Position numbers and translations under genes: made by a program. The notes below the pieces were generated by a model. That model saw only the letters and a program-made list of their open reading frames with translations, searched no databases and was not told where the DNA came from. Of a stretch of DNA of 5,718 nt, positions 3,183 to 5,718 are shown one piece after another. The stretch covers positions 1-5,718 of the forward strand of contig DRGT01000062.1 of NCBI GenBank assembly GCA_011055585.1, written 5' to 3'. The first letter of the stretch is position 1. The number at the start of each line of letters is the position of its first letter. The stretch comes from Candidatus Nitrosopumilus sp. GTDB taxonomy: Archaea; Thermoproteota; Nitrososphaeria; Nitrososphaerales; Nitrosopumilaceae.

Positions 3183-3968
3183 ATGGACTGGGGATTAAAA
3201 AATAGATTAGCACGAATAATCAAACCTGCAAATAACAGGGCTGTTATGCTTGCAGTTGATCATGGTTACTTTTTGGGTCCTACAGAACAATTAGAAAATC
3301 CAAAACAAACAATCCGACCTTTGCTAAAGTATTGTGACTCTTTAATGGTAACAAGAGGTGTTCTTAGAACATCAGTAGATGCAAACTATCCCGTGCCTGT
3401 GGTGTTACGTGTATCGGGAGGTACTAGTATAATTGGTGAAGATTTGTCAAATGAAGAAATCACCGTCAGTGTTCAAGATGCTATAAGAGTAAATGCTAGC
3501 GCACTTGCAATGTCAATTTTTGTGGGTAGCAAATATGAAAAACAAACAATTGTTAATCTTGGAAATCTTGTAAATGAAGCTGAACAATATGGAATTCCTG
3601 TCTTGGCAGTTACTGCTGTGGGAAAAGATATGGTAAGAGATGCTCGTTATCTTTCATTAGCATGTAGAATTGCAGCAGAACAAGGTGCACACATTGTAAA
3701 GACCTATTATTGTAATGACTTTGAAAAAGTTGTAAACTCTTGTCCTGTTCCAGTAATCATTGCTGGTGGAAAAAAGATTCCAGAACGTGAAGCATTAGAA
3801 CTAACTTACAATGCCATTAAAGCCAGCGCAGTTGGCGTTGATATGGGACGAAATATTTGGCAATCAAATTCACCAGTTGCAATGATAAAAGCAGTGAGGG
3901 CGATAGTTCATGGAAATGCAGATGTTAATCAGGCATATGATTTATTCCAAAAACCTGAAAAAGAATAA
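3183..3968 (+). CDS. lsrF: LsrF-type class I aldolase/thiolase (3-hydroxy-5-phosphonooxypentane-2,4-dione thiolase family)
   Basis: The 261-residue protein closely matches, from memory, bacterial LsrF along its whole length: DWG..RL.RI at the start, VMLAVDHGYFLGPT (21-34), TRGVLR (57-62), VGKDMVRDARY (146-156), IVKTYY (171-176), IAGGKKIPEREALE and GVDMGRNIWQS near the end. Lys173 in IVKTYY aligns with the Schiff-base lysine (Lys203) of E. coli LsrF, so it should be a catalytic TIM barrel of the DhnA/DeoC-like aldolase group. It lacks the roughly 30-residue N-terminal extension of the bacterial enzyme. In E. coli, LsrF moves an acetyl group from the autoinducer-2 breakdown product to CoA; whether that is the archaeal role is doubtful, as no other lsr gene is visible. 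ADH synthase of archaeal aromatic synthesis is a more distant relative. The frame continues past the stop with a Lys/Gln-rich tail. Confidence 0.85.
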   Translation: MDWGLKNRLARIIKPANNRAVMLAVDHGYFLGPTEQLENPKQTIRPLLKYCDSLMVTRGVLRTSVDANYPVPVVLRVSGGTSIIGEDLSNEEITVSVQDAIRVNASALAMSIFVGSKYEKQTIVNLGNLVNEAEQYGIPVLAVTAVGKDMVRDARYLSLACRIAAEQGAHIVKTYYCNDFEKVVNSCPVPVIIAGGKKIPEREALELTYNAIKASAVGVDMGRNIWQSNSPVAMIKAVRAIVHGNADVNQAYDLFQKPEKE

Positions 3969-4073
3969 CCAAAACAAAGCAAACCAAAATCAAAACCACA
4001 AGAACAAAACAAGCCTCAAAATAAACAAAAGAAAACAAAATCCAAAAAAACAGCAAAAGAAAAAGTAATCTAG
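3969..4073 (+). other. A-rich tract, in frame with lsrF after its stop, coding-like Lys/Gln/Pro tail
   Basis: After the TAA at 3966-3968 the same frame stays open for 34 codons to a TAG at 4071-4073 and reads as a low-complexity tail (PKQSKPKSKPQEQNKPQ, then Lys-rich). This could be the remnant of a basic C-terminal tail cut by one nonsense change. It could also be simple A-rich sequence, since one other frame is also open for most of this stretch. On the minus strand the same tract is T-rich and can terminate the NTF2-like gene. Confidence 0.45.
4010..4070 (-). terminator. U-rich termination zone downstream of the NTF2-like gene
   Basis: Read on the minus strand, the sequence just after the stop of the NTF2-like gene contains several runs of T, including runs of five and seven, which is the usual archaeal terminator signal without a stable hairpin. 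Inferred from composition and position. Confidence 0.45.
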
Positions 4074-4487: not shown

Positions 4488-4507
4488 ATGCATTCCTCTC
4501 GTAATCT

Positions 4508-4517
4508 TTATTAATTA
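4508..4517. promoter_or_regulatory. Shared bidirectional TATA-like element for the NTF2-like gene and the ilvB leader
   Basis: TTATTAATTA is nearly symmetric. Its centre (about 4512-4513) lies about 26 bases from 4487 on the minus strand, the preferred start of the NTF2-like gene. It lies about 26 bases from about 4538 on the plus strand, five bases before the leader-peptide ATG at 4543. One element could therefore direct both divergent transcripts. Prediction from spacing and composition. Confidence 0.45.
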
Positions 4518-4542
4518 TCGTCAATGTTTTAACTTGACCACA

Positions 4543-4605
4543 ATGAATACAATAAACACAGCTGGCGATTTGAGCGTTGTACTGCTAGTTGTTCTAGTAC
4601 TGTAA
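4543..4605 (+). CDS. Putative branched-chain leader peptide of ilvB (20 residues, ends VVLLVVLVL)
   Basis: A short ORF runs from ATG (4543) to TAA (4603-4605), 20 codons, ending 53 bases before the ilvB start. Eleven of the 20 residues are branched-chain amino acids: five valines, five leucines and one isoleucine. The last nine residues before the stop are only Val and Leu (VVLLVVLVL). This is what a ribosome-stalling leader peptide should look like upstream of acetolactate synthase, the gene that bacterial ivbL/ilvL leaders control by sensing charged Val, Leu and Ile tRNAs. Two of its five Leu codons are CTG, while none of the 23 Leu codons I counted in the visible part of ilvB is CTG, so it may sense a scarce tRNA. 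The start lies about 5 bases after a predicted transcription start, fitting near-leaderless translation. The ORF and composition are seen; expression and function are inferred. Confidence 0.75.
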   Translation: MNTINTAGDLSVVLLVVLVL

Positions 4606-4625
4606 AGTGTGGTCCATTTTTAACA

Positions 4626-4635
4626 GTTAAAATTA
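4626..4635 (+). promoter_or_regulatory. Alternative internal TATA-like element for ilvB
   Basis: GTTAAAATTA is centred about 26-28 bases before the ilvB ATG at 4659 and resembles the atpF element GGTTAAATTA. If active, it would give a leaderless ilvB mRNA that bypasses the leader peptide. It is the main competing explanation of this region, or a second unattenuated promoter. Confidence 0.3.
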
Positions 4636-4649
4636 TGGACTTGAGGTTT

Positions 4650-4655
4650 GGTGAT
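4650..4655 (+). promoter_or_regulatory. ilvB Shine-Dalgarno GGTGAT
   Basis: GGTGAT complements the ATCACC portion of the conserved archaeal 16S rRNA 3' end and sits three bases before the ilvB ATG. A second weak match, GAGG, lies at 4643-4646. A ribosome-binding site fits an ilvB that is translated from a message with a long 5' leader; most other genes here look leaderless. Confidence 0.5.
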
Positions 4656-4658
4656 TAA

Positions 4659-5718
4659 ATGGAAAATATGATCGGCGCAAAAGCTTTGATGAAAGCATTG
4701 GAAAAAGAAGGCGTTAAGGAGGTCTTCGGGTTACCGGGAGGTGCAAATCTTCCAATGTACGATGAATTATCCAAAAGTAACATTCGACATATCCTAGCTA
4801 GACATGAACAGTCTGCTGCACACATGGCAGACGGTTTTGGTAGAGTAAGTAGAAAGGCTGGAGTTTGTTTTGCAACATCAGGACCTGGCGCAACAAACAT
4901 TCTAACAGGATTAGCAACTGCTCATGCAGACTCTGCACCGATGATTGCAGTAACTGGCCAAGTTCCTGTTGCAATGATTGGCAGAGACGCATTTCAAGAA
5001 AGCGACATCATTGGAATGTCAAATCCTTGTGTAAAGTATGCATTTCAACCACGAACTCCTGAAGAGATTCCAGAAGTTGTAAAGAAAGGATTCTACATTG
5101 CAGAAACTGGAAGACCGGGACCTGTATTGCTTGACATTCCAAAAGATGTTCAACAGAATGAAGCAGAAATGACTTTTCCAGATACCATTAAGATGAGAGG
5201 ATATCATCCTTGGACTGATCCAGATATTGTCAATGTAGAAAGAGCAATTGAGATGTTACTCTCAGCTGATAAACCAATCATTTTAGCTGGCGGAGGTGTA
5301 ATTATCTCATCAGCATTTGCTGAATTGCAAGCGATAGCTGAAATGTTGATGATTCCAGTTGTTACCACTTTCAAAGGCAAAGGTGCATTTCCTGAAAATC
5401 ATGCACTATCCCTTGGTCCAATAGGAATGCATGGACATGCAGAGGCCAACAAACTCATGACTCAAGCTGACTGTGTATTAGCAACAGGTACCAGATTTTC
5501 TGATCGTTCAGTTGGAACCTTTGAAGAATTTGAAAAGCGCCTAAAGATTATTCATATGGATGTTGATCCAGCCGAGATAGGCAAGAACCAAACAACTCAG
5601 GTCGCAGTGGTTGGCGATGTAAAAGCATCACTTAGAATTATGATAAAGATGCTTCAACAAAAGGCAATCAAAAAGTCAGATGATAACAAGTGGCTAAAAC
5701 ATGTAAACGAAACAAAAG
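4659..5718 (+). CDS. ilvB: Acetolactate synthase large (catalytic) subunit, 3' end cut by window edge
   Basis: IlvB joins two pyruvates to acetolactate, or pyruvate and 2-oxobutyrate to acetohydroxybutyrate, the first shared step of valine, leucine and isoleucine synthesis, using thiamine diphosphate and FAD. The 353 visible codons cover the N-terminal pyrimidine-binding domain: FGLPGGAN (23-30), RHEQSAAHMADG with the catalytic Glu50 that activates the cofactor, then SGPGATN, the GQVP/IGRDAFQESD stretch and GPVLLDIPKDVQ. They also cover most of the central domain: ILAGGGVI, KGKGAFPENH, GMHG and TGTRFSDRSVGTFEEF, where many homologues have RFDDR. The C-terminal domain with the GDG...N thiamine motif lies beyond the edge. 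The ATG at 4659 is directly preceded by an in-frame TAA and by a GGTGAT ribosome-binding site. A Val/Leu-rich leader ORF lies upstream; ilvN and ilvC would be expected next. Confidence 0.93.
   Translation, partial: MENMIGAKALMKALEKEGVKEVFGLPGGANLPMYDELSKSNIRHILARHEQSAAHMADGFGRVSRKAGVCFATSGPGATNILTGLATAHADSAPMIAVTGQVPVAMIGRDAFQESDIIGMSNPCVKYAFQPRTPEEIPEVVKKGFYIAETGRPGPVLLDIPKDVQQNEAEMTFPDTIKMRGYHPWTDPDIVNVERAIEMLLSADKPIILAGGGVIISSAFAELQAIAEMLMIPVVTTFKGKGAFPENHALSLGPIGMHGHAEANKLMTQADCVLATGTRFSDRSVGTFEEFEKRLKIIHMDVDPAEIGKNQTTQVAVVGDVKASLRIMIKMLQQKAIKKSDDNKWLKHVNETK

What the first reader, a model, noticed from the sequence alone, without database searches (positions are those of the whole stretch)
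4543..4605. Val/Leu-rich leader peptide upstream of archaeal ilvB: a putative amino acid attenuator
A 20-codon ORF ends in nine consecutive Val/Leu codons (VVLLVVLVL) and sits just upstream of acetolactate synthase, whose end products are Val, Leu and Ile. It starts a few bases after a predicted transcription start. Such composition at this position is very unlikely by chance and copies the logic of bacterial ilv leaders. I know of no described ribosome-stalling leader peptide in archaea, so this could be a new regulatory system or an independent invention of attenuation.
Basis: partly seen in the sequence, partly recalled or inferred. Interest (0 to 1): 0.95.

Follow-up and report, generated by a model that had tools for sequence, protein, structure and literature searches.

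The report
Archaeal leucine/valine leader-peptide attenuator
Relatives of the marine archaeon Nitrosopumilus carry, just ahead of their genes for making leucine and valine, a tiny open reading frame that ends in leucine and valine codons; it likely lets a slowed ribosome switch those genes on when the amino acids run short, a kind of control known from bacteria but for which our searches showed no described archaeal case.

Summary
The ORF at 4543-4605 (MNTINTAGDLSVVLLVVLVL*) is real and beyond chance: 1 of 20,000 shuffles holds as long an I/L/V run before a stop. A rule blind to composition (TATA-like word, start codon 26-46 nt later) finds a short ORF before ilvB in 155 of 181 regions; 112 of these 155 have at least 6 I/L/V in the last 9 codons, against 4 of 70 control ORFs. 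A looser scan passes for 130 of 178 ilvB regions but 7 of 116 ilvD, ilvC, trpE and hisG regions. In a relative the operon is ilvB-ilvN-leuA-leuB-like. Leu codons in the tails are rare ones. RNA stems at the stop codon recur with unrelated sequences in different clades; in the window's group the RNA 5' end pairs with the post-stop stretch, with compensatory changes. Best reading: a ribosome-mediated attenuator that senses Leu/Val(/Ile) supply. It shows no excess of U-tracts (27 seen, 27.1 expected), so the output step is inferred: likely factor-dependent termination, possibly translation. A 2021 paper says no archaeal attenuation was known (PMC8448881, passage). Nothing here is experimental.

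The parts
4507..4515 (+). TATA-like box, predicted promoter of the leader and operon
   Evidence: sequence; TATA-to-start distance 36-38 nt in 47 of 73 leaders found by the rule among 81 loci
4536..4542 (+). arm 1, GACCACA, at or near the predicted RNA 5' end
   Evidence: complementary to arm 3; L001, L002, L003 share it
4543..4605 (+). leader ORF, 20 codons plus TAA
4576..4602 (+). nine Val/Leu codons, predicted sensing stretch
4608..4614 (+). arm 3, TGTGGTC, after the stop codon
   Evidence: pairs with arm 1
4611..4641 (+). 3:4 hairpin, GGTCCATTTTTAAC with GTTAAAATTATGGACT
   Evidence: folding; TTAAAATTATGG (4627-4638) is invariant in the 28 aligned relatives of A1
4635..4658 (+). second mini-ORF MDLRFGD*, stop directly before the ilvB ATG
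   Evidence: sequence; role unknown
4650..4655 (+). GGTGAT, Shine-Dalgarno-like, of ilvB
   Evidence: sequence; assignment by recalled archaeal consensus
4659..5718 (+). ilvB, acetolactate synthase large subunit, cut by the window end

Best explanation
The 20-codon ORF ahead of ilvB is a conserved leader that likely works as a ribosome-mediated attenuator of the branched-chain amino acid operon. When charged leucyl- and valyl-tRNA are scarce, the ribosome is predicted to dwell on the rare Leu codons and Val codons at the end of the ORF; its footprint would then keep the RNA around the stop codon from folding (a stop hairpin in many clades, the pairing of the RNA 5' end with the post-stop stretch in the Nitrosopumilus/Nitrosarchaeum group, this window included), and the operon would be expressed. 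When supply is good the ribosome would finish and leave, the structure would form, and expression would be cut. Shown by sequence: the ORF, its conservation, its codon make-up, its link to ilvB, the operon content and the recurring complementary stretches. Inferred: start site, translation, stalling, direction of the switch, and the output, which is most likely factor-dependent (FttA/aCPSF1-type) premature termination of RNA that no ribosome follows, because U-tracts are not enriched and the folding model shows no change in access to the ilvB Shine-Dalgarno-like site.
For: ORF in 155 of 181 regions by a composition-blind rule, 112 with at least 6 of 9 I/L/V vs 4 of 70 controls; in-frame I/L/V 479 of 657 vs 140 and 145 in the +1 and +2 frames; 130 of 178 ilvB regions vs 7 of 116 at ilvD, ilvC, trpE, hisG; operon ilvB, ilvN, leuA, leuB-like in L039; Leu written CTG 39 and CTA 65 of 190, vs 2.3% and 11.9% of 8295 background Leu; stems at the stop above their shuffles in 108 of 137, with unrelated sequences by clade; own 5'/post-stop arms pair better than arms swapped between species, 0 of 5000 permutations, and perfect pairs of different sequence.
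Against: No experiment. U-tracts after the stop equal expectation (27 vs 27.1 of 134). Stop-hairpin energies are moderate (z below -2 in 28 of 141) and several Nitrosopumilus leaders have none. The one stem counted on an alignment shows no compensatory change. The fixed-register arm test is weak (p 0.0066), and no test corrects for relatedness. Non-synonymous changes do not stay preferentially within I/L/V (21 stay, 38 leave). The rule finds no leader in 26 of 181, some of them close relatives. In the window model arms 1:3 and hairpin 3:4 largely coexist rather than exclude each other.
Confidence: 0.7

Rival explanations
1. Same leader and same sensing, but the output is translational: the ribosome at the end of the leader changes folding or reinitiation so that ilvB is translated more, without an effect on transcription.
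For: No U-tract excess; stop codon only about 25-70 nt before ilvB; a Shine-Dalgarno-like word within 22 nt of ilvB in 95 of 134; mini-ORF 4635-4658 abuts ilvB in the window.
Against: In the window model access to the Shine-Dalgarno-like site stays at 0.13-0.19 unpaired whatever the ribosome position tested.
Confidence: 0.3
2. Nascent-peptide arrest: the ribosome stops at the end of the ORF because the hydrophobic peptide itself, or free leucine, acts in the exit tunnel, as recalled for TnaC, not because of uncharged tRNA.
For: Last residue is Leu in 110 of 134 distinct peptides; Asp recurs in the tail.
Against: The tails differ in sequence between clades (LLLVDLVL, LQVVVLL, ILVLLLLA, VIVILIK) and use rare Leu codons.
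Confidence: 0.12
3. DNA-level control: the inverted repeats are operator sites of a transcription factor and the short ORF is incidental.
For: Inverted repeats lie at the predicted start and after the stop; palindromic GCTGTA/TACAGC in several clades.
Against: Frame-specific I/L/V content and rare codons have no reason then; the gap inside the GCTGTA/TACAGC palindrome runs from 3 to 9 nt and other clades have unrelated stems.
Confidence: 0.05
4. A small functional protein rather than a regulatory leader.
For: Conserved hydrophobic C-terminus.
Against: The N-terminal half is not conserved across clades, and the stop is embedded in complementary RNA stretches.
Confidence: 0.04

Closest known systems
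ilvBNC leader attenuator of Corynebacterium glutamicum (PMC11857589, passages)
   Same: Leaderless short leader (MTIIRLVVVTARRLP) before ilvB; BCAA codons; a hairpin (H1) that covers the leader's start region; proposed stalling on Leu and Val codons.
   Different: Bacterium; the BCAA codons are not run into the stop; has a terminator hairpin (H3) and antiterminator (H2) backed by mutants. Here no U-tract excess, and the stop codon itself lies in or beside the structure.
E. coli leuL, ilvL and ivbL leader attenuators (recalled, no call)
   Same: Runs of Leu/Val/Ile codons, rare Leu codons, BCAA biosynthesis operon.
   Different: Shine-Dalgarno-led leader, classical 1:2/2:3/3:4 structures and intrinsic terminator; bacterial.
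FttA/aCPSF1-dependent termination in archaea (PMC11616081, passages)
   Same: Candidate output machinery; the paper proposes as a hypothesis that FttA and a coupled ribosome exclude each other.
   Different: A general factor; no leader or amino acid sensing in the passages seen.
Short ORFs in long 5'-UTRs of Haloferax volcanii (PMC4983044, passages)
   Same: Archaeal short ORFs upstream of genes.
   Different: No amino acid run or attenuation in the passages seen ('attenuat' occurs 0 times in the text).

Membership tests
Ribosome-mediated (leader-peptide) transcription attenuator of the bacterial kind | Short leader ORF with codons of the pathway's end product | tested here: met
Ribosome-mediated (leader-peptide) transcription attenuator of the bacterial kind | Downstream operon makes those amino acids | tested here: met
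   ilvB in the window; ilvN, leuA and a partial leuB-like gene follow in L039; not seen in the window itself, which ends in ilvB
Ribosome-mediated (leader-peptide) transcription attenuator of the bacterial kind | Leader and operon share one transcript | not testable with these tools
   only a TATA-like word at a fixed distance
Ribosome-mediated (leader-peptide) transcription attenuator of the bacterial kind | Mutually exclusive RNA structures set by ribosome position | tested here: inconclusive
   ribosome masks at codons 13-21 cut 1:3 pairing from 4.65 to 0-1.4 pairs, and at codons 20-21 cut 3:4 from 9.5 to 1.4-1.9, but 1:3 and 3:4 coexist in the free RNA
Ribosome-mediated (leader-peptide) transcription attenuator of the bacterial kind | Intrinsic terminator (hairpin followed by U-tract) between leader and first gene | tested here: not met
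   runs of at least 5 T within 45 nt after the stop in 27 of 134, 27.1 expected from shuffles
Ribosome-mediated (leader-peptide) transcription attenuator of the bacterial kind | Ribosome stalls and expression rises on starvation | not testable with these tools
   needs experiment
Known leader RNA family in Rfam 15 | Match at the gathering score | tested here: not met
   0 matches in the window; 0 in 16 related loci

The most novel reading that the evidence does not exclude
Archaea have ribosome-mediated attenuation of their own making: an ancient leader-peptide switch on the ilvB-ilvN-leuA-leuB operon, kept across the class of Nitrosopumilus down to its deep branches, that starts at the very 5' end of the RNA, senses leucine with rare codons that run into the stop codon, and acts through stop-codon structure and loss of the trailing ribosome, followed by FttA-type termination, instead of through a bacterial U-tract terminator.
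Probability: 0.42. Interest if true: 0.95.

Novelty: new variant of a known kind. Interest (0 to 1): 0.88.

Why it matters
[quoted passage not shown] A leader kept across an archaeal class would be a first case and would mean that the archaeal ribosome can read amino acid supply in cis. [quoted passage not shown]

Tried and rejected
Rejected: chance ORF (and 52 against 80); bacterial-type U-tract terminator; known Rfam element. Tried without result: leaders at other biosynthetic genes (I/L/V at ilvD and ilvC; W at trpE 0 of 28, H at hisG 2 of 29, both far from the gene and alike by chance); a 400-kb stretch of genome G011 gave 8 short ORFs behind a TATA-like word and ahead of a long ORF, at most 5 of 10 I/L/V, while the same scan finds the leader in 4 of 4 positive controls; compensatory change inside the conserved Nitrosopelagicus-type stem (none). 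Of 30 ilvB loci from a phylum-wide draw of 121 genomes (the 30 best-scoring), 6 pass the looser scan: L332 is G017, already in the class set; L347 and L353 show a leader plus strong hairpin; L331, L336 and L345 I take for chance.

Mistakes mended on the way: genome-search loci are not turned for minus-strand matches, so read some loci on the wrong strand; one search turned them, but its trpE and hisG counts start from a domain inside the gene; one search starts from the gene's first ATG and only its counts are used as controls (7 of 116; one search had given 9 of 116). The composition-blind rule is imperfect: among its 26 misses are leaders visible by eye (L065, L097, L140, L185; L035, L065 and L140 are cut short), and among its 155 finds are wrong frames (L022, L070, L100, L163, L166).

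Selection: one search kept the best 80 of 378 relatives. One search found ilvB in 254 of 300 genomes and printed places for part of them; I fetched 60 of those at 82% identity or less, then 40 of the 80 genomes (80 of the 101 I first asked for). Some fetched regions come from genomes already; as cut, all 181 upstream sequences differ, and 142 of 155 peptides are distinct.

Papers: PMC8448881, PMC11616081, PMC11857589, PMC4983044, PMC13158618, PMC2965389, PMC10219788, PMC6393860 and PMC10450193: only passages found by term. [quoted passage not shown] The searches listed no title or abstract opening on an archaeal leader-peptide attenuator; several listings were capped, and the library lacks most subscription journals and all preprints.

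Full report
What is there. Before ilvB the window carries a divergent SnoaL-like gene (4493-4080, minus strand), a TATA-like box (4507-4515), the ORF 4543-4605, a stretch of inverted repeats (arms 4536-4542 and 4608-4614, hairpin 4611-4641) and ilvB from 4659. The ORF reads MNTINTAGDLSVVLLVVLVL*; its nine final codons are all Val or Leu. One of 20,000 shuffles of the intergenic stretch contains an ORF that ends in as long an I/L/V run.

Conservation. A scan of genome contigs kept the 80 best of 378 ilvB relatives, titled Nitrosopumilus, Nitrosarchaeum, Nitrosopelagicus and the like. A rule that uses a TATA-like word and a start codon at a set distance, not composition, finds a short ORF in 73 of 81 (window included); 479 of its 657 tail residues are I/L/V in frame, 140 and 145 in the +1 and +2 frames. 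With 60 less similar and 40 deeper regions of the same class a slightly wider rule finds an ORF in 155 of 181; 112 have at least 6 of 9 I/L/V and 80 at least 7, against 4 and 0 of 70 control ORFs found by the same rule elsewhere in the loci. The N-terminal half differs from clade to clade (L016 MSTTITGKLGVLLLVDLVL, L099 MKLGGSASISGILLLVDPLL, L154 MPHTGSESSRHKVKILVLLLLA, L181 MINNDMNSIKGKASFKVLEDIIKEVLLVILI); the kind of tail stays. The rule finds nothing in 26 of 181; some of these are leaders it misses, others, such as L058, L059, L062 and L068, are close relatives that seem to have lost it.

Specificity. A looser scan (any ORF of 8-45 codons within 320 nt whose last ten codons hold at least six I/L/V) passes for 130 of 178 ilvB regions but for 1 of 29 ilvD, 4 of 30 ilvC, 0 of 28 trpE and 2 of 29 hisG regions from 30 genomes of the class. 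No Trp-rich leader appears at trpE (0 of 28), and the two His-rich hits at hisG (of 29) lie more than 220 nt away. In L039 (Nitrosopumilus salaria) ilvB is followed by the acetolactate synthase small subunit, a 2-isopropylmalate synthase with the LeuA allosteric domain, and the start of an isopropylmalate/isocitrate dehydrogenase family protein: the leucine branch. That fits tails that are Leu first (537 of 1206 residues), Val second (238), Ile third (81).

Codons. In 61 distinct tails, last codon excluded, Leu is written CTG in 39 and CTA in 65 of 190 cases; long open frames of the same loci use these for 2.3% and 11.9% of 8295 Leu. Rare codons are what a charging sensor would be expected to use (inference). 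Between 81 nearest pairs, changes fall 124 times on third, 103 on first and 50 on second codon positions. Against a simple story, non-synonymous changes of I/L/V codons are not biased to stay within I/L/V (21 stay, 38 leave; about 19% and 46% of all possible changes would).

Structure. Stems at the stop codon score above their own shuffles (single-base shuffles) in 108 of 137 distinct sequences, and 45 of the 83 good stems begin 4 to 6 nt before the stop. The stems are unrelated between clades: GCTGTA/TACAGC with loops of 3 to 9 nt, GCGCGT/ACGCGC, GGACTCACA/TGTGAGTCC, CCCACAG/CTGTGGG, GGGCTCA/TGAGCCC. That is expected of an RNA hairpin kept at this place, less so of a fixed protein site. By folding energy the effect is moderate: mean z -1.02, z below -2 in 28 of 141. 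In the window's group the stop stem is weak; instead the start of the RNA pairs with the stretch after the stop. Over 138 sequences of all clades own arms beat shuffled arms in 82, that is, the pairing is a feature of part of them. Among 69 sequences with the TTAAAATTATGG element own arms bind better than arms swapped between species (-7.45 vs -5.38 kcal/mol, 0 of 5000 permutations). Perfect pairs of different sequence occur: GAGCACA/TGTGCTC, GAGCAAA/TTTGCTC, GAGTGCA/TGTACTC, GAATACA/TGTGTTC, GGACACA/TGTGTCC and, with the arm on the other side of the ATG, GACCACA/TGTGGTC in the window. A fixed-register test on 40 sequences (24 without the anchor dropped, the window's arm out of register) is weaker: 4.83 vs 4.55 of 7 pairs, p 0.0066. 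No test corrects for relatedness. The Nitrosopelagicus-type stem is 89.5% paired in register and 10-39% when slid, but shows no change on both sides.

How it would work. In a folding model of the window (start assumed at 4537, ribosome mask of -12 to +15) the free RNA forms part of 1:3 and the 3:4 hairpin together. At the tested codons 13, 15, 17, 19, 20 and 21 a ribosome lowers 1:3 from 4.65 pairs to between 0 and 1.4; on codons 20 and 21 it also lowers 3:4 from 9.5 to 1.9 and 1.4. Access to the ilvB Shine-Dalgarno-like site does not change (0.13-0.19 unpaired). Runs of at least five T within 45 nt after the stop are not enriched (27 of 134, 27.1 expected). So the switch is likely read by a ribosome at the end of the leader, and the output is not a bacterial U-tract terminator. 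I commit to ribosome-mediated attenuation with factor-dependent termination as the likelier output; that FttA competes with a coupled ribosome is so far a hypothesis of its structural study (PMC11616081, passage). A translational output stays open.

Place among known things. It works like the BCAA leader attenuators of bacteria, most like the leaderless ilvBNC leader of Corynebacterium glutamicum (PMC11857589, passages), but it fails their terminator test, so I do not file it as a member. No Rfam family matches. A 2021 study states that no archaeal attenuation or antitermination was known (PMC8448881, passage), and ten full-text searches listed no archaeal leader-peptide attenuator, within an open-access library and with capped listings.

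Noticed in passing
L327, L328, L335, L340, L341, L346, L349, L351, upstream of ilvB: In a phylum-wide draw, 8 of 30 ilvB loci carry a recurring structured-looking stretch (GUGAGGGAU..CCUC type) 66-182 nt before ilvB in place of a leader; no Rfam match in these loci. Perhaps a separate ilvB cis-RNA.
   Followed up: partly
window 4635-4658: A 7-codon mini-ORF (MDLRFGD) whose ATG lies in the invariant TTAAAATTATGG element and whose stop abuts the ilvB ATG; in some relatives (for example L057) the same ATG is in frame with ilvB and could be its start.
   Followed up: partly
L005 and L009 (both Nitrosopumilus sp. b1): Two ilvB copies in one genome: L009 has the leader MNKSTDKTALFLLVVLL, L005 has none by the rule.
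   Followed up: no
L173-L177: A deeper clade has leaders ending in only two or three Leu codons (KTKLLL, RRFLL, GFLLL) and no stop hairpin (z -0.3 to 1.8), perhaps a leucine-only version.
   Followed up: no
window 3966-4070; L080 about 2057-2440: A K/Q/N-rich low-complexity stretch after the DeoC-like aldolase gene; in L080 the same place holds a repeated RNQTSQRTTLTK-like stretch.
   Followed up: no
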